Assembly: GCA_032358255.1 (NCBI GenBank)
Contig: JAULBX010001114.1
Span: forward strand, 1 to 64,000
Reading direction: 5' to 3'
DNA length: 64,000 bases
Source of the DNA: Heterotrichella gracilis
Lineage: Eukaryota > Sar > Xanthophyceae > Tribonematales > Xanthonemataceae
Shown: one piece after another, positions 8,101-61,691 of the stretch
Layout: each line of letters starts with the position of its first letter
Position numbering within the stretch: the first letter of the stretch is position 1
The notes under the pieces: model-generated
The model's input: only the letters and a program-made list of their open reading frames with translations
Databases searched by the model: none
What the model was told of the DNA's origin: nothing
Made by a program: the position numbers and the translations under genes

Positions 8101-11041
8101 AGGCCTCCATGTGCGAATTCCTGGCTGATCTGGAGGTGGTTGCCCTGCCTGAACCCAGCCCTGGCGGAAGCCGGAGGAGCAGCTGGAAGGGGGACTCGCC
8201 AACAACCACCATGAAGATCCGCACCCTGGCCACCCAGGCCAACCGGGACAAAACCCTAAGGGACAAGCTGCGCGCGTGGGAGGTCCACTTCAGGGAGATG
8301 GGTGCGTGAAGCAACCTGGAAAGTGATTGTCGGCACTTGCATCCAATGTTGTGCCTGCACAATATGTACAGATTATCCGCTGTACAACCACACAGCTGCA
8401 GAGTCTATGGATAGGGCCCTCAAGCCTAAACCCCATAATGCTGGGAAATGACACGGCTGTCATGCTGATCACATCCTGGTGGTTTGTTGACACTGCATCC
8501 CTACAGGGCATCCTGTTGAGGTGCGCATTTGCAGTTGGATCCACCAGATCCCGGCTGTGGCATGGTACAGGTGAGGAGCTCAAAGTTGCCATCGCCAGCT
8601 GGCAGTCCAAGCACTCTGCAGACCCTGTGCCACTGGATGTTGGCGGATTTCTGGATGGAACACTGCCTGTGGTGGACCTGTACGAACTAAAGGTATGCAC
8701 CCAGGCACCAACAAGCATGTGCTGTACCCAAAGAGCTGCAGCAAAATGAAAACGTGGTGCCATGTTGTCAAGCAATCCCCAACTGCATCCCAGCTGCCGC
8801 CACCGCCAGACGCAATGCGAATGTGACCCTATCTTGCCATGCCCCATGACAGGATCTTGTTGTCCACGTGCCCAATCCCGTTGCTTCCTCGCTGCCGTGC
8901 CATGCCTGCGCTCCTATCTCCTCCTCCACACTGCTGTCGCGCCATTCATGACCTCCTTCCACTCCCCAACCCGCCCTTTCCCTCCCACCCTAAACCCTAA
9001 ACCTTCTCCCCCGCAGGTGCGCCTGGAGCACATGATGCAGCGGCTGCGGGTGCTGCAGGACGCTGCAGCCACCGCCTGCCCCGCGCCCCTGCTGCCGCAC
9101 CTGTACCTGTCGGGGGCAGTGGCCGCGCACTCCTACCACGTGCTGCACCACCTGGGGATAAGCCATGTGGTGAATGCAACAGAGGTGGGGCAGGGCAGGG
9201 TGGGAGCATGCAGTGGTCATGCTGGACCTACATGGCATTCAGATTGCCATGGGATAATTTACTGCAATTGAACGTGTCTTGGATTATGCCAGTGGAGTGG
9301 GCGTCCAGGCTGGTCCCACAGGAACTCAAGAATCAATGCATCGTTGTTGTGCCTGCCAAAACCAAGGCAGGCCATCACGTTTTTGTACTTTATTTACTTC
9401 AAATAAACAAATAATAATAAAAATAAAAATTGATGTGTAAATGACAAGGCAATTCAAGTTGCTACAGCTTTACATTGCAGTCACCTGCACCCTTTGCCCA
9501 AAAGAGTGGAGTGAAAACTGGCAAAGCAACCATCTTGCCAGTCATTCACATCGCCACGTAAATTGAATGTGCACACAATTTCCCCTCTTTGCTTACCTCC
9601 ACCCTTGCACACCCCGCCTGCAGGATGTGCTTGAGCCAGACCCTGAGAGCGGCCTGGTGTGCCTGCGGTGCCCCCTGAGGGACAGCGAGGAGGCAAACCT
9701 GCAGGGGCACATGGAGGCAGCGCATGAGTTCATCACAGAGGCGGCGGAGGGGGGCGGCAAGGTGCGGTGCCGACTGCAGCATTGTACTGTATTTTTGTAA
9801 GAATAATATACTTTATCACATTGTTTTATTAACTGATTAAGAGCGCGTGAGTTCATTGCGGAGGCAGCGCAGGGGGGCGGCAAGGTGTGGCAACGGCTGA
9901 AAAGCTGGTCAGTTAATTGCAATCATGACGGGGTGGGTCGTCATGGGCACCTATGTGTGCATGTTGACTGGTATGAGGGTGCAATGGTGCTACCCATCAA
10001 TGTAATGCCTCATATACAGCAACGCGCCCCTAATTAGCCATAATGCAGTGATATAATATGATCCAATTTGCCAGATCCGGAGATGGTGTCTGTTCTTGCT
10101 GCTCTCCATGCCTCCGCAATGGCAAAGAGTTTCAACACCTTCACACTCCACATGTACCCTCCCCTCCTGCAGGTGCTGGTGCACTGCCACGAGGGCCGCT
10201 CCCGCAGCGTCTCCCTGGTGCTCTACCACCTCATGTGCACCCTCAGATGGCCGCTGCGCAAGGCGCTGGCGTGGGTGGGGTCGCGCCACGCCGTGGCGGG
10301 CCCTAACCCGGGATTTTTGACCCAGCTGCTGGAGGCCGAGGAGGCCCTGCTGGGGTCCCGCTCCTCCCTCAAGGTGAAGAAGAGCAGACCGGAACCGCAG
10401 GTGAGCCCATTGAGCATGCTTGGTGTGCAGATATGGCAAGTTGATACTATCCCTACACAGTATCTAAGTGGAGGGCAAGGACTTACCCTGCCAGGGCATT
10501 TGAGTGAGCCAATGGCAATGGGGTTTGGTCTGTCAGCAAAATGAACAGCGCACAATGCATGCGGTGTTAGGTGTGATGGAGTGGTTGAGCGACTGGGTCA
10601 ACGGGGTGGACTCGTCAATACTATCAACATGACAATCACCACTGTGTTACAATTGGCCTGTTTATCCTTTTATAATTGCAAGATTCTGATCAGGTGCTTT
10701 TTATAAAGGGAAGGGCTATGTCACCATGTTTGTGATGATTGCAGATTTGCCCCTTCTGCCATGAGCGTGTGGGCGTGTCAGTCCAAACCCTGCTGGTACA
10801 CGTGCGCAAGCATCACCCAAGCCACGACAGGGAGCTGCCGCAGGAGGTGCAGGACAGCCTGTCAGGCCTCGCCTCGCCCCGGCCCTCCACACCGCACAGT
10901 GCCAGTCGGTCGCCGCGGGTGGAGGCGTCCGGCCTGCTTTCGCTGCCACCGTCGCCGCGCCTCGCACGAGTGTGGACTGACGGTGACGCCACAGGATTGC
11001 CTGCGGCGCAACGATTGCCATCTTTCCAGGGCCATGGATAG
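5136..11041 (+). CDS. PHS1: PHS1-like atypical tubulin kinase / dual-specificity phosphatase
   Basis: The protein runs across about 13 exons. The first half is an actin-fragmin-kinase-like domain: KVLFCLFAP and CVIAKFNASR in the exon ending at 6419; MLVMEFVPGRALFK in 6595-6777; then LVDMLLGNADRLP, WRGNPDNILY and IMAIDSM in 7121-7357, which supply the catalytic Asp, the Asn and the metal-binding Asp. After a helical linker (8029-8692) comes a dual-specificity phosphatase domain: LPHLYLSGAVAAH (9018-9183), RCPLRDSEEAN with the general-acid Asp (9624-9761), and the P-loop HCHEGRSRS with the nucleophilic Cys (10174-10399). The last exon (10743-11041) opens with a CxxC...H...H finger (ICPFCHERVG, HVRKHH), as in plant PHS1. 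In plants PHS1 phosphorylates alpha-tubulin under hyperosmotic stress and its phosphatase restrains that kinase, controlling cortical microtubules. Start at ATG 5136 is tentative; 5'-most exons (5136-5900) are weakly conserved. Confidence 0.92.
8986..9003. repeat. Telomere-like CCCTAAA repeat in PHS1 intron
   Basis: Two tandem CCCTAAA units sit in a C-rich intron end just before the acceptor of the exon at 9018. The unit matches the plant-type telomere repeat. Confidence 0.8.
9842..9889 (+). repeat. Intronic copy of a PHS1 exon 3' end
   Basis: This stretch repeats, with a few differences, the end of the exon that stops at 9761 (copy at 9719-9768). The shared parts are GAGTTCAT, the purine-rich tract ending GGGGGCGGCAAG, and the donor gtg. 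The copy lies about 120 bases into the downstream intron and is open in the exon's frame for most of its length. Confidence 0.75.
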
Positions 11042-31829: not shown

Positions 31830-34800
31830 ATGGCTGAGGCGCTTGCTCAGCGGGCTAAACAGCTGAGAGAATGCCTCACTTGGAGCGACACCTTGACGAA
31901 AGACGCGGTCAGCCTGCTGGAGAGCTACACAGAGGAACTGGAGGAGATTGACAGCACCGTTCAGGATGTTGCCAAGCGGTCTGCTAATCTGGTCAAAGCC
32001 CGGGAAAGCATCAGGAGGGCTCGGGACAAGGCAGAAGAGGTCCTGGAGTTCCTTGACGCCTCGAGAAAGGTGGGTGATGTTGACATCACCCCCACAACAT
32101 GCCGCAATGGCACTTGTTTAAAACCACTACACCAACTAATACACCAACTAAGGAACCATGATGGGTGCAGATCGAGCCCATTATCAAGCGAGGACCTCGA
32201 GAAGACCTGGAGGGCTACTTGAAAGCCATGGAGCGACTGGAACTGGCGATACAGTACCTTTCAGAACACAGGTGTGTTGCGCGGTTGTAGCACACGACAA
32301 GGCCAGTACTAAGTTGCCTAGCAGTAGCAGGCTGGGAGGAAAAAGGCCTTGCTTTCTTTAAACGTGTATGAGTGCTGGGGTGCTGCATATGAAGAGCTCC
32401 CTTGACAGTCACCAGCAGGTTCTCTGGATGCACTTCAAGTGAGACACATCGTATGCCTGCCTTTCAGGAACTACCACACCGCCGGCGAAGCCCTGAACGC
32501 AACCACGGAGCTGCGCCAAGATGGGCTCATGCTGCTGCACAACGACTTTGTCACCACGCTGCAGCAGTACAAGGTCACGCCGCAGATGCTGCTCTCCACG
32601 CAAGCCGACATGGTGGAGGCGATCGGCGATGGCACCCCCGCAGTGCTTGCAGTGCTTGACAAGGTGCCCCGGCTGCCCCCCACGCTTGTGTACCGCCTGC
32701 ATGCGCTTTCGGTGGTGCTGGTGAGGAGCGGCAAGGGCACGCAGTGCCTCAAGAGCTACAGCGACCTGCGCAGGTGCGCTGCAAACCCTAGCTTGTGGTG
32801 CAGGCCCACTACCTGCCGGTCTTCGGAATACAGATGGAAAATTCAGACCCTTGCGCTGTTGCATCCCCAGCAACCTGTTACGCAAAGGGACCACCTGCAA
32901 GAACATTTTTTGTCGAGGGCATTGCCCCAAGGTCACCTCGGTGTGCAGCACTACGTATTGCTAAGGTGGGGCTGGCTCTCTGTGCAGGGGTGTGCTTGAC
33001 CGGGCGCTTCAGAACATGCATCAAGAGATGCCGAGCAAGGACGAGTTCCTCAAGCTCAGCTGGGGCACCATCGAGAAGAAGGTCCAGCGGTGCGCGACGC
33101 ATTAAATTCATATCAATAAGAAAAGTAAAATAAGTATATAAAAAAACAGTAATTTAATAAAAGTAATAAATTTAATAAGAAACCGCCATGTCTTAATTAA
33201 TGACAATTGTTCAGGAATAAGTAACATAACTCGTGTGTATCAACCACACGCAGATGGATTCAAGCCCTTGGTGTAATGACTGCTGATGCGTTCATGGAGT
33301 GCCGCAACTGCCAGGAGATTTTTGACCTGCCCATCTCCGAGAGAGCATATGTGGAGGTGCGCTTTGCACCTGGTTGATCAACACAAGGGCGTGATAGTAC
33401 ACCTGCCATCCATGGATCATCTCGACTGGTGCAGAACTATGCGTCAGTGCTTCTGCTTAGACATGGCCGTGCGCCGCATGTAACCCTGAGTGGTTTGCTT
33501 GCCTCAGGGCGTGGCCGCACTCCCCACCTCCCTCATACCGTTGGTGACCTGGTGGTGCTTTATAGCCAGGTTTAGCATTGGTGGGCAAGCCACACCCCAC
33601 TAAAAAGAGCCAAGGCTTGTCAAACCCTTCTTTCCAGTGTGGCAAGTCTTGGTTGGTGCGTGCGGTACCTCTGCAATCATGACCCACCCACATGTGAGGT
33701 GATCCTGATTGCCTTGCCTGGCTCAGGGCGTGGGCGCACCCCTAACAGCCCTCATCAATTTTGGTGACCTGGTGATGCAAACACGGCGCCTGCCCGACAA
33801 GATGTTTGGCCTACTGGACATGCTGCAGCAATTGGAGGTCCTCTCGCCCATCCTGCAGCAGACGGACTTCTCAGGTAAGCATGTGTGGCCACGGGGTTGG
33901 GCGTGTGGCTGCGTCATGACCGCGTGGTGAAAGCTTGCTTTGCTGGTGTTCAATTGGGTAAACACATGCATTTAAGCAGTTATGCCGCATCAGCAGTAAG
34001 CCTTGCACAAGCAGTTCTGCACTGCAGCTCTTTATCGGTACCATTTTACCATGCTGGTTGTGGATCCCACTGATGTGTCCTACTGGAAATAAACCTTCAA
34101 AGTTGAATATGGCTCATGTCACTCCTTTGAATTGGCTGTTATTTACCACCGCATTTGGCCAAGTTTGGGCGGAACTGCTTGGCAGTCGAGGTCATCCTAT
34201 TGAATGTCTTGCTGAATATGGTGTTGCACTGACCTGGCCATTGCTGCCTCATCCTGCAGGTGCAATCGCAGCTCTCACCAAGGATTTGGTCAAGCTGGGT
34301 GTGCAGCTGCGGCAGGAAACCAAGGACATATTTGCAGAGTTCCAGTCATCCATTGGGAACGAGATGGCCAAAGCAGTGGGTAAGTAGCGTTTGGCGATGA
34401 TCACCGCATACATGCCCATTACCATCCCGTTGCCAATATATGTAAAATGGTATTAAATTAATATATTATGTAATATTAAGAATATTGTAATACTTCATTG
34501 CCCTTGCCCATACCTGTAGTGCCAACATCAATCGACGATGTCCCGGGGCAATCCATGGGGATTGATTGATGTTGGCACTACAGCATGCCAACATAATCAA
34601 TGCTAAAGACCTTTGGGAGCAACAACAACATTCTGCGCTCTGCGCAGTGCATGCAAGTTCACCCCCTGTGTGCTTTCCCTGCAGTTGCTGAGGGCACGGT
34701 GCACCCCCACACCGCCTACACCCTGTCCTTCCTCAAGCGCATGCTCACGCACGATACAGCCCTGACAGTGCTGTTTGGGTACAAGAAGCTGGTGGCAACC

Positions 34801-36933
34801 CCCTCGCAGCAAGCTGCCAGGCCGGATCGACTGCACAAGTGAGTGTGGAAGCCACTGCGTTGCAATCTGCTGTGCATGTATGGCCCCATCGGCTGATGGT
34901 ATGGTACTGCCGGTGTTGTTAGACGCCCCCTGGATAGGCGCGGGCTGGCCCAAACTGCCCAAAGACATCGGATCCGGGGATTTTCCGATGCCCACACCTA
35001 GCTAGTCCCAACTGCACAAACATGCCTTCCTCCTCCTGCCTATTCAGGCGCACCACCTCAGAGATGCCCAAGCTGGAGCCCGATGCCCTAGCTAAGGTTA
35101 CTGCAGCGCTGCAGCGGGTGCTGGGGGCATTGGAGGAGGCGCTCAACAGGAGTGCAGGGGGATACAAAAGCAGGGTAAGTCGCAGCCTTCAAATGGCACA
35201 CATGGCAATGAGGGGATGAGGGCTGGAAATGCATGTGAGAAGGAAGGAGCACAGTAGTTAGGCCCCTGGTGACGTCAGTACTGCTAAAACAACCAACCAG
35301 GATCAGCCAGGCCCTTCCGCAACAAAAGTCACAACCCAATCCTCAGAATCACAGCAATATCAGAATTTTGTTTTGCCGTGCAGGCGCTGAATGCCCTCTT
35401 CATGATGAACAACACCAACTTTGTCGCTCGCACCGTGGAGGCCAGCGAGGCACTGAAGATGGTGGGGCCAGTGTGGATGGAGGAGCGGCGCAACGCAGTG
35501 GAGGAGTATCTGTTCGAGTTCCAGGTGAGGGCGCTGCGGGTCCCTAAACCCTAAACCTGTAAGCCCTAAAACCCTAAATCCTAAACAGTTCCAGGTGAGG
35601 GCTGCGGGTCCTGCATGGGTGCTTTATACATACAGATGTGGGGTCATTATCCCGTCACTCTGCCCTGCCTCTAGCAAAACGTGTGTTGCTGCTGCACATG
35701 CAATGCCTGTCACAACTTGCCTGAAATTACAACGAGAATGGCTGTCGTCGTGCTATCCCTGGGATCCATTTACATCCCAAATTAGATGCTGAAAATCTGG
35801 ATCCAATCCCCAAAGTGGCAAAATCCAGTGGCAAAATCCAATCTAATAGCAAAATGGAAGGCCTCCCAGCAATAGCGGTATCACGGTACCATATCATCTG
35901 CTCGTGTGCTGACCGCCATCCCTGGGATTTACCCCTTGCAGGCACAGGCGTGGGGCCAGCTGCTGAGTTGGCTGTCGAATGACGAGGAGCAAAGCGGCAG
36001 AGGAGCAGCTGGATCTGGGAAAGTTGCCAGGGTGCGTGGGTAACAATTAGTTTTTCATGTTTTGTGCAATTTTGAAAGGATGTGTATGCAACCCTTATGG
36101 CGCAATGCCTGCTGCATGTGAGCAGTGATCTATGCTCCTTCTTGGTCTTTGCTGTGTGTCCTCAACGTGATTGCACGTGCATTGCTTCATAAGGAGTTAA
36201 GCACAGGCCTCCTGCCACGTTGAGCGCCTCAATATGCCTCCCTGCTGCTTCCCATAGCAGTGTCTGTATTCTAGTTTATTGTTTAATGATTTGATAATTT
36301 AGTGAAGTTTTAGTGAAATAAGTGCATGTGTTTCAGCAGTACAACCACCTGGTGGAGCTTGGTTTTGAATGGAATATACACTCTACTGTAACTTCCTGTT
36401 TGCTCTAACGTTCTGTTTGCATGCTGCACCTGATGCTCACTTGCTTTTTGATGGGCCTGCAGAACGCGGTGAAAGACAAGTTCAAGCATGTGAACAGCAG
36501 CCTGGATGCGCTGTGCTCCTCACTTTGCAGCTGGAGCATTGCTGACGCGGCGCTCAAGCAGAGGCTGAAGGAGGCAGCAATCGACGACATCGTGCCGGCA
36601 TTCACGGTATGACCCCGTTTATTTCCTTGTTGATCATGTATTGACTATGTTTGGTAGCGAAGCTTCATGCCTGGATCAGCGGTTATTTACAGGACTGGAA
36701 ATTGAGTTCATCTTTCGCTGCATATACACGATTTCCTGGGAAGGTATAAACCCTGAAAGCCCTGATGTTGTCAGGAGTTCCTGCGGCGCTACGAGTCAAC
36801 CCCCTTCACCAAGAACAAGGAGAAGTACTTCCGCTACACGCCCGACCAGCTGCGCACCATCATGCGCACAGCCTTCTTCGAGGCCATGGACGCAGGCGCC
36901 ATCACAAAGCTGACGGGCGCAAAGAAGGGGTAG
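31830..36933 (+). CDS. EXO70: Exocyst complex subunit EXO70
   Basis: EXO70 is the exocyst subunit that binds plasma-membrane phosphoinositides and tethers secretory vesicles. About 13 exons are readable. 31830-32069 gives an N-terminal coiled coil (AEALAQRAKQLRECLTWSDT, KARESIRRARDKAEEVLEFL). 32171-32271 gives RGPREDLEGYLKAMERLELA. About 32469-32774 gives NYHTAGEALNATTELRQDGL. 33727-33873 gives INFGDLVMQTRRLPDKMFGL. Later come HTAYTLSFLKRMLTHDTALT, ALNALFMMNNTNFVARTVEA, KDKFKHVNSSLDALCSSL, and the family-typical C-terminus RRYESTPFTKNKEKYFRYTP followed by QLRTIMRTAFFEA, ending at TAG 36931-36933. The start is ATG 31830; codons upstream stay open but contain no earlier ATG. Two of its introns carry duplicated exon edges. 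Confidence 0.92.
33497..33561 (+). repeat. Decayed intronic copy of an EXO70 exon start
   Basis: CTCAGGGCGTGG(c)CGCAC..., with GGTGACCTGGTGGTG downstream, repeats the acceptor and first 50 bases of the true exon at 33727 (GGCGTGGGCGCACC...GGTGACCTGGTGATG). It lies 217 bases upstream and differs at several bases, so it is a degraded duplicate of the exon start. Confidence 0.75.
34514..34583. repeat. 70-bp element with perfect 20-bp inverted repeats in an EXO70 intron
   Basis: CTGTAGTGCCAACATCAATC (34514-34533) is exactly mirrored at 34564-34583, with a 30-nt spacer that includes CCCGGGGC. It would form a strong hairpin in the transcript. I see no clear target-site duplication, so calling it a MITE is speculative. 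Confidence 0.85.
35517..35612 (+). repeat. Duplicated exon 3' end flanking telomere-like repeats (EXO70 intron)
   Basis: The true exon end and donor AGTTCCAG|gtgagg at 35517-35543 recurs at 35587-35612 with the following intron bases (CTGCGGGTCC). The 43 bases between are a degenerate CCCTAAA array (CCCTAAACCCTAAACC, CCCTAAAACCCTAAATCC). Confidence 0.88.
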
Positions 36934-44416: not shown

Positions 44417-47400
44417 ATGTGGGAGTTCTGGCGGTCTAAAGCAAGCAAGAAGTACAAGAGCAGACCTGGCTCGGACTCGGACAGTCCCTCAACCGCGCGT
44501 CATGGTACGGTGTATATCGTGGTGGTGGTAGCAATAATTAAGGGAAGCAAGGTCTGTTCTCGCGCTCAGAATGTGCTCGCACGTCAGGCAGCATATATAT
44601 AATGCATGCATGTGGTGTCGCGGTGTACTCGTGGCCAAAGAGCGGTAACCGCGCTTGCTGTTACATACGCGTTGTGTCCGCGTTGTTCCCACTCAGCTTG
44701 AATTGAACTGAATACCTTGTCTGCAGTGCCGCGCGTTGCTTTAGGCAGGTTGTGCAAGTCTGGTGCAAACAGTCACAAGTTGCCACCTGGCCACCTTTCT
44801 GCTCCTGCTCCTGTGCCGCCTGAAAGCAAGTGTGCAAGTGATCACAAGCTTGCTAGCAAACACCGTGTACTCATACTTCTCAACCCTGTGTCTCTTGCCT
44901 GGACCCCCGCCTTGCGGCCTGTGCGTTCCCGACATGCGCCCAACCAAGGTGCACTGCCTGTGATACAACGGCACCCCTGGATCCTAAGTTGAAGCCTGCT
45001 GACCTTCCCAGCTCACGAACCACACCGGCGAGCTCCATCCTCCCTTGCTGACAGCGCTCCATTGCCCCTGCAGGCAACCCAGTATGGGACAACATGCACC
45101 TGGCGCCGGGTATGTCCCCCGAGGCCTCCACCCACGTGTTCTTCAAGGACCTCAAGCTGCCAGCCAACGACAGCGACGAGCACCTGGACGACTTTGAGGA
45201 GGTACATATTCCCCCATGTACAGCACTAGCAGATGCGCCTGAATGCTTGGCAGTTAGGTTTCCAAGATCCAGCGTCACCGGTTATGCAGGGTATCATTGG
45301 TTTACACTCATAATGTCGTGTGTTAAAAACACTTGCTCTTGCACACGTGATCAGCGGTTATTTGTAGTGTTATAAAAACAACAATTTAACTTATGATTGT
45401 ATCTTTAGGGTTCGGACAAGGGCATGGCTAGGTCGCGCACCAGCTCCCGGCTGCAGCTGGCAGGGGTGAGCATGGCCAGGCGCATCGACAAGCAGAAGCT
45501 CATAATCATCCTGGTGGGGCTGCCGGGCAGGGGCAAGACCTTCCTGTGCAACAAGCTTATGAGCTACCTCAACTGGTGCGTGCGCTGGCTGGCGGTGGCG
45601 CGGCGCAGCTCGTGAACGTTGACGGGGCATATGCTGTGCAATCTGCTCGTGCTCGTGTGTGGGGGACACACTTGACTCGCGACAGGGTACACTAACCCCT
45701 TGACAGTATTGGAAGCCATCCGTAATTTCAGCAATGTTCCACCTCCTAAGGCCCCATGCCAACCATAGTAGCAGTGCGCCATTGCCTGAGAAGCGCTGGT
45801 TCCCTCCCCTGTGTCTTACGTACTGAATCTTCCCCCGCAGGCTGGCCCACCCCACCCGCCACTTCAATGTAGGGCTGTACAGGCGCAAGCTCAAGGGGGC
45901 GGACGAGATCCAGGACGCAGCCTTCTTTGACCACAGCAACCCGGTAGGGAAACCCTACAAACCCCACGCCGGCACCCAACCACGCCCTGGTCGATGGCCA
46001 CTGCAACATTGCTTGCAGCTGCGCCAGACCCTTGTGCAAGCCTAGCGGCATGCGTGTCTGTCGAGACCCACCACCACGGTGCGCTGCACATGGAAAATTC
46101 TTTTGCGCCTGTCGCAAAACCCTGAAAACACCCTGTCGGCGGTGCAGATAGGGCTTGAGGCGCGCCACCATGCGCTGTACCTTGCCCTGGAGGACATGGA
46201 GAGCTGGCTGTCGAGCGAGGGCGCCCAGGTGGCCATCTTTGACGCAACAAACTCGACCGAGGAGCGGCGGCAGCTGCTGGTGAGTCAAATGCCCTAAAAG
46301 CACCCTTATTGTTGATGTAATTGCTGATGTAGTAGCTGAGACACTGAAGGCATAAAGTGGGCAACCCTAGGAACCCTTGTTTTAGTAGACAGCTCCCAAT
46401 CAGCTGGAGATTGCAGCTGCAGCTGAGGCAAATGCCCTGGAAAACCTCCCGTGGGTTGGGTAATCAACTCCACAGGGAGGCACATTGCAGTGACGAGGCC
46501 AATACCCTCCAAACGTGATAACGATGTACCCCAGAGCCATCAAGAGCAGAAATCAGCCACACTTGGCACACTACATCCCGCCATTGAGAGTGCTCGTTGC
46601 ACTGTGGTCCCACCCAGGCTGCTTATCCTCACCCTCACCCTAAACCCTAAACCCTCGTCCTGCCCTTCATCTTGACCCTCACCTTCTGTTGCCTCCCCGC
46701 AGCGCGACCGCTTTCACGGCACCTGGCAGTACCTGTTCATCGAGTCCATCTGCAACGACCCGCTGGTGCTTGAGCAGAACTACCGCTCCAAGATGATGTA
46801 CTCGCCTGACTACAAGGGGATGGACACCACGCAGGTGAGCAGGGGGGGGCGAGGAGCAATGCTTGCAGGGTTGACACGCTGGCTAGGTGCTGGCGCCGCC
46901 TGTAGGCTTCCCTGCCAACCTGGAGAAAGGCTGGCCTCCCCATTGCAATCCTGCCATTCCTTCCATTTGCACCTACATGTAGGAGGAATGCCTCCTGTGG
47001 GATTTCCAGGCATCGTTCCATTAGACGACTCACTCCATAAAAAAATGCAGGGAGGTCTTGTTTTCCCTTTTGACCTGTTCCCCGCGCAGGCAATCGAGGA
47101 CTTCCGGGCGCGCATACGCAACTACGAGGAGGTGTACGACACGATCACAGACAGGAACCTGCACTACATCAAGCTCATCGACATGTGCGTGCGCTGTTGC
47201 AAACCCTAAACCCTGAACCCTGAACCTGCACTACATCAAGCTCATCGACATGTGCGCGCGCTGCTGCAAACCCTAAACCCTAACCCTGAACCTGCACTAC
47301 ATCTAGCTCATCGGCATGTGCGCGCGCTGCCGACAAATCTAAACCCTGAACCCTGAAGTCCTCAAGTATAGTCACGAGGCATCAGCTAGAGGGTGTTTTG

Positions 47401-50400
47401 TGAGCGCTGGACCAACGCCTGGTGGAGCCTGTCGACCCAAACTCCCAAGATGTGGATGTATCTTCACTTATGCAATGCAAAATATGTACAGTCGCAGCGG
47501 CCTGCGTGGTGGAGTTGTATATCAAGCGCTGTTTCCCCATTGCAGGGTGACAGGCCGCGGCTACATGGATGTGAACCGCATCAGCGGCTACATCCCAGGG
47601 AAGATGGTGTTCTTCCTGATGCAGGTGGGAATACTTGTACTGTCTGTGGGTGTTGCATTCCCCGGTCCGGCTAGTTAAATGCACGCAGGAGTGAGTGGAG
47701 GCAACCTGGGGCCAACGCATGTGACTGTTAACCCTGAAATGGTAGTGTTCCCTCCCCTGCTACTTGCTTCATGGCTTTCCCCTACCGGCAGGTGTGCAAG
47801 GTGGGCCTGACACGAGTGAGGAAGATTTGGATGACTCGCCACGGGGAGAGCGAGTACAACACTATGGAGAAGATAGGGGGGGATAGCCGGCTGAGTCCCA
47901 GGGGGGAGATATACTCAAAGCTGCTCCCTGAGCTGCTGGTCAGCAGGGTGCCCATGGTGCGCTGCCAAACCCTAAGCAAGGGTTAGGGTCATGTACCTGC
48001 AGGAACACTTGCCTGCGTGTCCTCGGCCGGAAGGGATCCATGCATCAGTGGCTACACGCCATGCATTCCTGTCCTTTGCAAATATGTACAGTGTATAAGT
48101 AGAATGTGATCCCACTACACAGTGTCCCCTTCTTCACACCCCACCCCTGTCCCCCTCTTGACTGCCTCACTCCATCTCCACCCTCTACTGGACTCCCGCC
48201 CCACCCCACACCACACCACACCACACCACACCACGCCACGCCACACCACACCACACCACACCACACCACACCACCTGACCCCATCCCACCCCACCTTGCA
48301 GACCCAGGACGGCTCCCTCGCCCCCGTGTCAGTGTGGACCTCCACCCTGCGCCGCACCATCCAGACCGCGCTCAACCTGCCCTTCCCCAAGCTGCGCTGG
48401 AAGGCGCTGGACGAGATTCAGGCGGGCATCATGGACGGCATGACCTACGAGCAGATCTCGCACACCATGCCGGACGAGTTTGCGCTGCGCAAGCAGGACA
48501 AGCTGCGCTACAGGTGCGGCGGAGGTTAGGGTTTGGGGTTTTTAGGGTTCTGTTATAAGCAGAGGTTGCACAATTCCTCCAAATTGGATTGTGGTGCGCA
48601 AGCAGGACAAGCTGCGCTACAGGTGCGGCCCAGAGGACCCTAAACTCTACACATGCATGAGCTGCTGTAAGGTGTGGTTTAGTCAGGGTTTGGGTTATGC
48701 GCTGGGCACGCAGGACAAGCTGCTGTTGGAATCCTGGTTGTTGGGGTGGAGATAAACCCGAACTAGATGTGGTGCAACTTGAAATCCCTACACCCTTGAC
48801 CCTACGCAGGGGCCCTGCTGGCAAGAGCTACATGATTGTGGTGCAGTATGAATATCCATTTTTGTGCATACACCTTGAGCAAACCCTACCGTCAACCCAT
48901 GCAGGTACCCCGCCGGCGAGAGCTACATGGATGTGGTGCAGCGCCTGGAGCCCGTGGTGATTGAGATGGAGCGCGAGAAGGAGTGCGTGTGCATCGTGGG
49001 CCACCAGGCCATCCTGCGGGTGCTGTACGGATACTTCACACTTACGCCGCTGGAGGTGCGCGCCGCGATGGAAACCCTAGCGCAGCTGCGGCCAAAACCC
49101 TAGCGCTGCCCTGTGCATCTGCGCAGCATGTTTCTGCTGAAACAGGGGGCATCTGTTTGGACCACCTGCCGCCCTTGCGGTTGTCCAGACCCTCCAATGA
49201 CCCGCCCGCAGCGGTTGTTCGCCAAGTGTGCATCCCTTGGTGTTTTGCACACCCTCTTCATCACCTTTTGGCTCCTGCTGTGTCCTCCCTGGTCAGTTGC
49301 TGACTTTACATACATCCCAGCACCTGGGCCAATAATCAGTCAGCATTGCACGGGCATCTGTCCTGGCACTGTTCATACCATGTCTTGATTTCTCGGTACC
49401 CCCTTGTTTTCCCTGTCCCATGACCCTCCCCTTGGTTCCTTGTGGTGCAGCAAATCCCGCGCCTGGAGATCCCCCTCCACACCCTCACCGAGCTCACCCC
49501 TCGGCCCGACGGCACCATGCACATCGAGCGCATCCCCATCGACGTGGACTCCGCGCTGGCGCAGGAGCAGGCCATGCACGCGTGAGTGGTGCATCCACAA
49601 TCATGTGCATGGTCAAAGTTTGAAATGAATTAACAATCACCCCCTCACCCTCCCCCCGCCTCTTACCAAAAAAAACTGAAGTATAATTTACGATATATTT
49701 CACTCCCAAGGCACATCACTCTTTAGTAAGCACGTAGATTTATACAAATGGATAAAATTATGAGCAATATCACAAATGCGGTGTGCAGTGAAATGATCGC
49801 ATGCATGTCTGCGCACCCATAGTCAGGCGCATGGTGAAATCCATGCGCAAAGGTACCCTGCGCCTGCAATTGGGCGCATGAGGGCATGCAGGATTGGGTG
49901 CATGCTGTGGCACCAGCAAACTGCAAGATGGCGCACAAATGTAAATGGCGGGGTGACCCATTTGCTGATGGTGGTGAAGGTTGGGTTGAGGTTGGATTGG
50001 CTTTGTGGTTGGACAGTGGCATTAATCATGGGCATGGTACACATGCACTAACACTGCATATATATGATGGCCGCGTGTGCACATTGCACAACTATAGGCA
50101 GTAGTGACGCCAGCCACCGGAATATAAATTGGCCATAAATAAGTGGAACAAAGAGTGCTTCAACCTGCACGAGGAAGTTGCACCGCCCACTGCTGTCGTG
50201 TGTGTTATAAGCAGTGCTTGCTAGTGAGACTCTGCGTACCCATCAGCGCAACTTCTGAAATACAACCGCTGCAATATACTCTCGCGTTGGCTTAGACTTG
50301 CACATAGCAGCAGTTCCCCTTGGGTTGATTGTTGCATCCACCTTGCACTGGCCCATTAAATGCCCCATGGCTTGAAGGCGAACATTGAGTATGTATGTGT

Positions 50401-58390: not shown

Positions 58391-61300
58391 ATGGAGGAAG
58401 CTATTGCCGCCTCCCACCAAGCGGACCATGCAGCTAACTTGAAGCTGCACCACATGCCTGCTCTACCTCAGGAGGCTGGCCAGCCATGCAGCTCATCGTT
58501 GGCAATGGTGGACTCCCCAGTAGCCCCTTACCAGGCCCTGCCATTCAACAGCATTATGAGGCAATATTTCACACCGGCCTTGTCGATCCCAGAGCGCCAG
58601 GAACAAACGGAGCAGGTACACCTCTGGAACCCTACAAACCCTGCAAAAGTACCCACTGTGTTTCCACTGCTAAGGCACTTTCCCTGAAGGCACCTGTCCA
58701 GAAGCCTGGGCTGTCCAATACAGCATTGCATTGGGCAGCAGCTTAGCGATGTTGCCACCACCCTGTTGTGCAGGAGTTCAATGAAAAGATGAGCGAGCTC
58801 TTCAAGGACTACCGTGAGAAATTGGAAAGCAAGACCTTTCACCATGTTGGGTAAGGAGCACTCCGTATTTTTTCCGTGGCTGGGTATATGCATGCATATA
58901 GCAGCCTGACAGGATGTGACCTGCACACACCTCAACCCCATACGTGCTGATCAAGGGCAACCGACATTGCAGCTACCCATACAACCTGGACTTCGACTAC
59001 GGGCCACTTGAGCAGCTACAAAAGTTCTGTATCAACAACCTGGGCGACCCATTCATCGAGAGCAACTATGGTGTGCACTCTCGAGAGTTTGAGGTGGGCT
59101 CCCCTTGCATTGCACCCTGCCTGTCAGCAGACCCTGTCCAGTTGCATCCATTGCACACCCAGCCGTTCCACTGCTGGGCCGCCTTGGTAGTGGTCAATGT
59201 GGTGTGAACTTCTGTGTCAACTGTCAGGCTGTCAACTGAGGCCTGGTTTGGGTGTTTTCCCAGATTGGAGTGCTAGACTGGTTTGCACAGCTGTGGGATA
59301 TTGAGTTGGACGAGTACTGGGGGTACATCACCAACTGCGGCACAGAGGGAAACCTGCACGGCATCCTGGTGGGGAGGGAGAATTTGCCAGATGGTGCGGT
59401 GCGCCGCAGCATGTGACGCAAATTTGTATTTTGCTCTTGGGAGTGCTGGAAAAGTGCTTTCCCTTGTGTGGTGCATCATGCTGCACCATTGCGCTGGCAT
59501 GACGAGGCACCGCAAGTTTTCTCCAGGGTTTTTTGCTGAGCCTTCCCCCTGCCTGTTCCCGCCCCTAGCCTGCCGCCAGCGGGCCTCTGCATCCTGCACA
59601 CCTCTCACTGGCCGCCAACCGCCATGCAGGCATCCTCTACGCCTCTCGGGAGTCGCACTACTCTGTGTTTAAGGCGGCGCGCATGTACCGCATGGACGCC
59701 ATGCACGTGGACACCCTCCCCTCGGGCGAGCTCGACTGCGCCCACCTGCGCCAGCTGCTGCGCGCCAATGCGCACCGCCCCGCCATCATCAACGTCAACA
59801 TCGGCACCACCGTGCGGGGGGCGGTGGATGACCTGGACGCCATCCTGGCGGTGCTCAAGGAGAGCGGGTTTGAGGAGGAGCGGTTCTTCATCCACTGCGA
59901 TGGCGCGCTGTTTGGCCTCATGGTAGGGCGGGCAGCGGCGACAAATGCGGTTGCATGCATTGCATGCAGGATGGCCACGGCCAACTGGGACAGCTAAACG
60001 AAATTCTCTGCAAATATGGTATCGCGGACAGGGGTGACAGATACCATTTGCATGCATCGCATGCAGGCCAGCGCGATGCTAGAAATGCGTATGGTGTGGA
60101 GATGCGTATGTTGAGCCTATTGGTATAAATTAGGAAGGCACCACCATTAGAGCAGCGATAAGGGGCAGGGTGTGTGGGACTGGCACCCGACGCACACAGA
60201 CCAACTCGATGCTGCACCAAAACATTGGCCACGCAGGGAAGGCGATCCTGTGTGATCAGCACACCATAATGGGACATGAGCATCCAGCGTGTTTGCCAAC
60301 TGCTCTGCTTCACCTCCCCGTGCAGATCCCATTCGTGAAGCACGCCCCCTTGGTCACCTTCCGCAAGCCCATCGGCTCCATCTCGGTTTCTGGCCACAAG
60401 TTTGTGGGCTCGCCGGTGCCGTGTGGCGTGGTCATGACGCGCTCCCGCTACATCAAGGCGCTGTCAACAGAGGTGGAGTACCTCAACTCAAGGTGGTGAT
60501 CTTATCTCTAATTTTCGGTGATGTATCTTCTGTGAATTTTCTGCGGTCAGTATCACTACTTTCAGAAATGTTCATTGTGAATCATTTACTTTATTTTTAG
60601 TGTTTATACCGTTGTCTCTTAAGCTACTGCACCATGATATGGCAATCGTTTCTAATAATCTCCTCAACTCCCAATCAAATTAATATTGACTGCTAAATGT
60701 GGCTGTATAGCTGTAGTGCATGAAACAGGTAGAATTTAAACCTTATGTTCCTCCCTCTAGGGACGCCACTATCATGGGATCCCGCAACGGCCATGCGCCG
60801 CTGTACATGTGGTACACACTGGCGCGCAAGGGCAGGGACGGCATCCGCAAGGACGTTGAGAAGTGCCTGCGCAATGCGCACCTGCTGCTGGTGAGCCCCG
60901 CTTGCCCTTGTACTTGTTCAAGTTGTTGCATGCGGATGCAGGGCTTTGGTAATGATCAACTGCAAACTACGCATTACATGGCTGGCTACCGCAAGCACAT
61001 AGGGCAAATTGCTCATCTGGCGGTATTGCATGCAACTATGACCAGTTGTACAGCCAGATCAGCAGCCACCCCTGCACAGCCTGTGCCAACGGGCTCGTTG
61101 ACTTTAGGCAGGCTGTAACCCATGTTTAATATTCATCCTCTATGTGGAATGTCAAGTGTGCATGCCGCCGATTGCGGGCGGGTTTGTCACCCATGAATGG
61201 GCCCCCTGCAGCGCCCTCCCCTGCCTGAATGTGATGAGCACCTGCCCCCACCTTGCACCCACCCCCTGTTGGTTGCTGTGTAGGCCAAGCTCCATGAAGG

Positions 61301-61691
61301 CTGCGTGCCTGCCTCCCTCAATGACCTGTCCAGCACTGTGGTGTTTGAGAGGCCGCTGGATGAGACGTTTGTCAAAAAGTGGCAGCTGGCATGCGAGGGG
61401 CCCATTGCGCACGTGGTGGTCATGCCCAACATCGACCCAGAGAAGATTGAGCTGTTTGTGAGCGACTTGCTGGCCAGCAGGAAGCGGGTGGGACAGGGGG
61501 AGGGCAATGGTGTACCAAACGGGGATGTGGCGAACGGGGAGAGCAGCGGGACAGCACATGGGGAGGGCAATGGTGCAGCAAACGGGAATGCTTTGAGTAG
61601 GAAAAGCAATGGTGCAGCGAACGGCGATGCGATGAATGGGGAGAGGAACGGTGCACCCAACGGGGAGGCAGAGGTAGGGGTAGCAGAGTGA
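58391..61691 (+). CDS. SDC: Serine decarboxylase (PLP group II)
   Basis: Decarboxylates serine to ethanolamine, the precursor of phosphatidylethanolamine and choline lipids. Exons 58391-58615, 58774-58853, 58973-59093, 59264-59394, 59630-59922, about 60327-60492, 60762-60892 and 61284-61691 agree in phase where checked. Diagnostic stretches are [97 protein letters not shown], and [13 protein letters not shown] with the PLP-pyridine Asp. The PLP lysine is in [15 protein letters not shown], followed by [15 protein letters not shown]. The N-terminal 75 residues are unconserved. After SDLLASRKR a tail of about 55 residues made of NG-x-x repeats ([24 protein letters not shown]) ends at TGA 61689-61691. 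Histidine decarboxylase-like paralogues are the main alternative. Confidence 0.92.

What the first reader, a model, noticed from the sequence alone, without database searches (positions are those of the whole stretch)
47155..47357. Exon end triplicated in its own intron, each copy capped by telomere-like DNA
Three tandem 66-67 bp units reproduce the last 30 bases of a PFK-2/FBPase-2 exon, its donor site, and an AAACCCTAAACCCTGAA tail. The first is functional, the second nearly identical, and the third decayed with an in-frame stop. This looks like repeated copying of an exon edge together with TTTAGGG-type DNA. A break-repair or telomerase-assisted event creating intron sequence is one explanation; I know of no named system for it.
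Basis: partly seen in the sequence, partly recalled or inferred. Interest (0 to 1): 0.75.

Follow-up and report, generated by a model that had tools for sequence, protein, structure and literature searches.

The report
Triplicated exon edge with telomere-like tails
In a green-alga-like gene for a sugar-phosphate regulatory enzyme, the end of one exon and a bit of telomere-like DNA were copied twice into the following intron. This is probably a scar of ordinary DNA-break or replication repair, though similar scars with telomere-like DNA recur at neighbouring exon edges.

Summary
Window 47155-47357 holds three head-to-tail units (67, 66 and 70 bp). Each carries the last 30 nt of a PFK-2/FBPase-2 exon, its 5' splice site, and an AAACCCT-type tail. 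Units 1 and 2 match at 64/67 columns; unit 3 is decayed. Chance and assembly error are poor explanations.

The locus is not alone. The window has eight local direct duplications with 67-219 bp offsets outside coding repeats. Seven straddle an exon edge (2.4 expected), and six contain telomere-like heptamers (about 1.2 expected). Four of the eight lie in this same gene. At 35517-35611 a 43-bp telomere-like insert is flanked by a 25/27-bp copy of another exon edge, which is the published geometry of telomeric insertion at a staggered break.

Best explanation: a short interstitial telomeric tract lay just after the splice site, and two small tandem duplications then copied edge plus tract. The tract and the exon share GAACC(C)TG, a possible microhomology. 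No new intron was made and telomerase is not needed at this locus. The organism, sister species, RNA and reads could not be examined. The ingredients are known; their repeated pairing at exon edges of one gene is a modestly surprising variant.

The parts
47090..47184 (+). PFK-2/FBPase-2 exon ending ...DRNLHYIKLIDM; its last 30 nt (47155-47184) are the copied exon edge
   Evidence: Gene model; protein alignment to PFKFB structures through this junction
47155..47221 (+). Unit 1: exon end (30 nt) + donor GTGCGT at 47185 + AAACCCTAAACCCTGAACCCT (47201-47221)
47222..47287 (+). Unit 2, intronic: exon part 30/30 identical, donor-like GTGCGC at 47252, telomere-like tail 47268-47287
   Evidence: 64/67 aligned columns identical to unit 1
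47288..47357 (+). Unit 3, intronic, decayed: AAG->TAG and other changes, donor-like GTGCGC at 47318, degenerate tail AAATCTAAACCCTGAACCCTGAA
   Evidence: 60/71 columns identical to unit 1
47185..47545 (+). Host intron (361 nt) containing units 2 and 3
44417..49585 (+). PFK-2/FBPase-2 gene (5' start and 3' end approximate). Six of its eight introns between 45944 and 49450 have a telomere-like heptamer starting within 18 nt of the donor
48480..48737 (+). Second case, a later exon of the same gene: edge + donor (48480-48520) copied at 48589-48629 (39/41) and partly at 48698-48723, with fillers containing TTAGGG/CCCTAAA-like DNA that are not homologous to each other
48775..48941 (+). Third case, same intron, acceptor side: start of exon 48905-49055 with its 3' splice site has an older copy 96 bp upstream (74% over 74 nt)
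46270..46450 (+). Weak case, same gene: donor edge with CCCTAAA copied 143 bp downstream (82% over 38 nt)
35517..35611 (+). Exo70 gene: 27-nt exon edge + donor and its 25-nt copy (2-nt deletion) directly flank a 43-bp degenerate (CCCTAAA)n insert
33485..33778 (+). Exo70 gene: acceptor edge with older copy 219 bp upstream in its own intron (79% over 75 nt)
9719..9890 (+). Dual-specificity phosphatase-type gene: donor edge copied 123 bp downstream (86% over 49 nt), no telomere-like DNA

Best explanation
This is a young, decaying tandem-duplication scar, not an active element. Step 1 (inferred): a short TTTAGGG-type interstitial tract lay 16 nt inside the intron, next to the 5' splice site; it was probably acquired by break repair, as interstitial telomeric sequences are elsewhere. 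Step 2 (inferred): replication slippage or end joining of a break used the partial match between the tract (GAACCCTGAA) and the exon (GAACCTG) to duplicate the block 'exon edge + donor + tract', and this happened again to give three units. Step 3 (shown as sequence): the extra exon pieces lie inside the existing intron, where they are apparently spliced out and free to mutate. Similar scars at other exon edges suggest that telomere-like tracts and small local duplications arise together here, either because both are products of the same break repair or because the tracts destabilise their surroundings. Shown: copies, order, divergence, association. Inferred: the enzymes, the order of events, and splicing out of the copies.
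For: Head-to-tail direct copies with unit-specific differences. All three units, including the last, carry the tract. The junction CCCTGAACCTGCAC can be read as intron tract and as exon with 3-5 nt shared. Local direct repeats (<300 bp apart) occur at about 0.65 per million position pairs, against about 0.01 for distant pairs at 30 bits. Exon edges recur in their own introns only in direct orientation; no reverse-complement copies exceed chance. Telomere-like motifs occur in 6 of 8 duplication spans against about 1.2 expected (P<2e-4, 5000 draws). In introns as a whole they number 75 sense + 22 antisense against 12.6 + 6.5 in simulations. The 35517 case shows tract insertion with a target duplication, a geometry described for mammals (PMC2246262, PMC7215372). 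Interstitial telomeric tracts placed in a yeast intron are unstable (PMC9272169). Small tandem duplications form at breaks with complementary overhangs through CST-Pol alpha (PMC8355091).
Against: No empty allele or sister species could be seen, so the order of events is inferred. The microhomology is short and lies in a periodic tract, so it could be fortuitous. At 48480 the fillers between copies are not homologous, so one simple model does not fit every case. The telomere association is dominated by one gene (4 of 8 events), so events may not be independent.
Confidence: 0.6

Rival explanations
1. Telomerase (or capture of telomeric fragments) added TTTAGGG repeats at staggered breaks at the exon edge. 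Fill-in of the overhangs duplicated the edge on both sides of the insert, once for each event.
For: This geometry is present at 35517-35611: 27/25-nt flanking repeat, 43-bp degenerate (CCCTAAA)n insert, and a CC in register at one junction. About 5-16% of mammalian ITS insertions carry target duplications (PMC2246262: 4.6% rodents, 16% primates; PMC7215372: 4.5% horse). Intronic telomere motifs cluster within 25 nt of donors (9 seen, 2.3 expected).
Against: At the reported locus the last copy is also followed by the tract, so edges do not outnumber tracts as this model predicts. Two independent insertions of near-identical tails at the same nucleotide are less simple than duplicating one block.
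Confidence: 0.2
2. The intronic copies are kept by selection as decoy or alternative 5' splice sites; their use would bring in an early stop codon and lower PFK-2 output.
For: The three donors score almost equally (8.9, 8.3, 8.3 bits; median real donor 8.6). Unit 2's exon part is unchanged over 30 nt.
Against: Unit 3 has decayed. The tract itself gives an in-frame stop about 20 nt into the intron whichever downstream donor is used. No RNA evidence. Unit 2 is young enough for 30/30 identity to mean little.
Confidence: 0.08
3. Assembly error: one repeat unit was expanded or chimeric reads were joined.
For: Tandem units of this size can be miscounted by short-read assemblers (general knowledge).
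Against: The three units differ from one another by substitutions and indels, the third strongly. Independent exon-edge copies with different lengths occur elsewhere in the window.
Confidence: 0.04
4. Ordinary tandem duplications happen everywhere, and those over exon edges are merely easier to see because the exon copy stays conserved. The telomere-like motif is just a common intron word in this gene.
For: About 30% of tolerated duplications should straddle an edge anyway (2.4 of 8). Short (13-28 bp) tandem duplications in the window are not at edges. Telomere motifs are concentrated in this one gene.
Against: 7 of 8 at edges, P=0.001 (0.006 with the short arrays included). Motif co-occurrence 6 of 8 against about 1.2 even when null spans are anchored at exon edges.
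Confidence: 0.3

Closest known systems
Small tandem duplications at DNA breaks (CST/Pol alpha-primase fill-in and end joining; PMC8355091)
   Same: Head-to-tail copies of tens of bases at one site
   Different: The unit carries a telomere-like tract and was duplicated more than once; the enzyme is unknown here
Interstitial telomeric sequence insertion at double-strand breaks (PMC2246262, PMC7215372)
   Same: Short telomere-type tract at an internal site; the 35517 case has a target duplication
   Different: At the reported locus the tract follows every copy and is not bracketed by two; TTTAGGG type in an alga-like genome, concentrated near 5' splice sites
Intron change by tandem duplication across an exon-intron border (potato RdRp, PMC4974935)
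   Same: The duplicated block crosses an intron boundary and includes splice signals
   Different: Here no new intron is made; the copies only lengthen the existing intron
Plant telo boxes and their proposed spread by telomerase acting on 3' ends in transcribed DNA (PMC3022908)
   Same: AAACCCTA-type motif in genes, with a proposed telomerase origin
   Different: Telo boxes concentrate in 5'UTRs, promoters and first introns; here they lie near donors of internal introns and associate with exon-edge duplication
Introners (PMC9860276)
   Same: Recent intron-associated sequence gain in algae
   Different: No dispersed family of similar introns in the window; target duplications there are 3-9 bp

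Membership tests
Small tandem duplication scar / minisatellite | Adjacent head-to-tail copies | tested here: met
Small tandem duplication scar / minisatellite | Junction microhomology or fill-in signature | tested here: inconclusive
   3-5 nt GAA(CC) shared, but within a periodic tract
Small tandem duplication scar / minisatellite | Single-copy state in relatives | not testable with these tools
   No genome held for the window; no relatives in viral or prokaryote collections
ITS insertion at a double-strand break | Telomere-type tract at an internal site, more than chance | tested here: met
ITS insertion at a double-strand break | Tract inserted between target copies (one tract fewer than copies), in the variant with target duplication | tested here: not met
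   Reported locus has 3 tracts for 3 edges; met at 35517-35611
ITS insertion at a double-strand break | Empty orthologous site | not testable with these tools
   No related genome available
[quoted passage not shown]
   Reading frame and protein alignment need one intron 47185-47545 covering both extra copies; splicing itself not observed
Introner | Similar introns at many sites | tested here: not met
   No dispersed intron family in the window; genome-wide not tested
Plant telo box | AAACCCTA motif | tested here: met
Plant telo box | Location in 5'UTR, promoter or first introns | tested here: not met
   Motifs lie in internal introns near donors

The most novel reading that the evidence does not exclude
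In this lineage, telomeric repeat addition at breaks near 5' splice sites, followed by local copying of the exon edge, is a recurrent mutational route by which introns grow and gain decoy splice sites across the genome.
Probability: 0.15. Interest if true: 0.72.

Novelty: new variant of a known kind. Interest (0 to 1): 0.45.

Why it matters
If the pairing of telomere-like tracts with exon-edge duplication holds across the genome, it would link telomere-type repair to intron growth and to the origin of alternative splice sites. It would also give a sequence signature (exon edge + CCCTAAA tract + edge copy) that can be counted in any genome. If it does not hold, the locus is a neat but ordinary repair scar.

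Tried and rejected
Own genome search: none held. Non-coding RNA and tRNA: none. The first gene-finder run gave useless tiny exons because splice penalties were too weak; fixed. A self-BLAST of the window at a very loose cut-off timed out. Shared secondary structure: the G-rich strand of the locus does not fold better than shuffles (z +1.4). The idea that the two fillers at 48480 are one duplicated filler was rejected (alignment score within the random range). An introner-like intron family was rejected within the window. The idea that donor-proximal AAACCC is the top intron 5'-end word in the window was not upheld: it is 14th by P value (about 0.002) among tested hexamers and not significant after correction. 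The paper on ITS-induced rearrangements in yeast (PMC3856781) is not held.

Full report
OBSERVATION. The window (64 kb, 52.5% GC, no N) shows intron-rich genes typical of a nuclear genome. A home-made gene finder trained on the window gave nine gene models with 104 introns, exon GC 61%, intron GC 50%, mean exon 133 and intron 345 nt, donor consensus AG|GTGCGTG. The composition is close to that published for the green alga Coccomyxa subellipsoidea (53% GC, exon 59%, intron 49%, mean intron 240; PMC3446292). This is a resemblance only; the organism was not identified. At 47155-47357 lie three tandem units of 67, 66 and 70 bp. Unit 1 is the end of exon 47090-47184, its donor, and AAACCCTAAACCCTGAACCCT. 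Units 2 and 3 are copies inside the intron. The gene is a PFK-2/FBPase-2: Pfam 6PF2K E=2.2e-67 and His_Phos_1 E=1.6e-32, and colinear with solved PFKFB structures across the junctions. Chance is excluded, and the substitutions between units make an assembly duplication unlikely.

WIDER SEARCH. A self-comparison of the whole window showed that local direct duplications are far more frequent than distant matches (about 0.65 against about 0.01 per million position pairs at 30 bits). Eight events with offsets of 67-219 bp remain after setting aside a coding repeat and simple repeats: 9719, 33485, 35517, 46270, 47155, 48480, 48775 and 59920. Seven straddle an exon edge, donor or acceptor. If a duplication may fall anywhere that leaves the coding sequence intact, 2.4 of 8 are expected (P=0.001; 0.006 with the short arrays added). 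This is probably inflated, because the functional exon copy changes slowly and so old edge copies are easier to recognise. Matches of exon ends to their own introns exceed matches to other introns in the direct sense only, not as reverse complements, which fits tandem duplication.

TELOMERE-LIKE DNA. Heptamers of TTTAGGG type are in excess in introns (75 sense, 22 antisense; 12.6 and 6.5 in third-order simulations), most strongly in the PFK-2 gene but also outside it (31 and 14 against 13.0 and 5.6). Within introns, sense clusters favour the first 25 nt (9 against 2.3 expected, P=5e-5). Most of that comes from the PFK-2 gene, where six of the eight introns between 45944 and 49450 have a motif starting within 18 nt of the donor (one of them antisense). 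Six of the eight duplication spans contain a motif, against 1.2 for spans of equal length anchored at random exon edges (0.8 when the PFK-2 gene is left out of the null; no draw of 5000 reached 6). Four of the eight events are in one gene, so they may not be independent.

ANATOMY AND MECHANISM. Two geometries occur. In the Exo70 gene at 35517-35611, a 43-bp degenerate (CCCTAAA)n stretch lies between a 27-nt exon edge and its 25-nt copy, and nothing telomeric follows the second copy. This is the published pattern of a telomeric insertion at a staggered break with target duplication, seen in roughly 5-16% of mammalian cases (PMC2246262, PMC7215372). At the reported locus every copy, also the last, is followed by the tract. 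The simplest history is that edge and tract were already neighbours and that the block was duplicated twice. The end of the tract (GAACCCTGAA) and the start of the copied exon part (GAACCTG) share 3-5 nt exactly, more with one slipped base, so slippage or microhomology-mediated joining can explain the boundary. Small tandem duplications at breaks are documented, partly through the telomere-associated CST complex and Pol alpha (PMC8355091), and telomeric tracts placed in a yeast intron are unstable (PMC9272169). At 48480-48737, in a later exon of the same gene, the edge recurs at spacings of 109 and 108 bp, but the fillers between are not homologous, so a third path such as templated filler at a break is possible there.

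CONSEQUENCE. The intronic copies keep donor-like sites that score about as well as the real one. The reading frame runs into a stop in the first tract about 20 nt past the real donor, so use of a copied donor would give a truncated product. Unit 3 is decaying. Nothing indicates that the copies are maintained. No new intron has arisen, unlike the potato case in which a duplication across an intron boundary made one (PMC4974935).

VERDICT. The reading of the sequence is right, and the feature belongs to a small set of similar scars in the window. The most likely explanation is known repair chemistry acting on a gene rich in telomere-like tracts. The open point is whether telomere-like tracts and exon-edge duplications are linked across the genome; the window suggests it but cannot settle it.

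Noticed in passing
35517-35611: 43-bp degenerate (CCCTAAA)n stretch flanked by a 25/27-nt copy of an Exo70 exon edge with donor; looks like a telomeric insertion with target duplication.
   Followed up: partly
48480-48941: One PFK-2 intron carries copies of both its upstream exon end (two copies, spacing 109 and 108 bp) and its downstream exon start (96 bp upstream); fillers between the donor-edge copies are not homologous although the first edge copy is 95% identical.
   Followed up: partly
32774 and 47957: Introns of two different genes begin almost identically (GTGCGCTGCAAACCCTAG and GTGCGCTGCCAAACCCTAA).
   Followed up: partly
33485-33778: An Exo70 exon start with its acceptor has a 79%-identical copy 219 bp upstream inside the intron.
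   Followed up: partly
59920-60067: Intron segment that starts at the donor is repeated 96 bp on (79% over 52 nt), includes GCATGCATTGCATGCAGG-like palindromic DNA, no telomere motif.
   Followed up: no
48195-48295: CCACA/CCCAC pentamer array (about 20 copies) directly before a PFK-2 acceptor site.
   Followed up: no
61493-61668: Imperfect 39-63 bp coding repeats at the C-terminal end of a PLP-dependent decarboxylase (Asn/Gly-rich tail).
   Followed up: no
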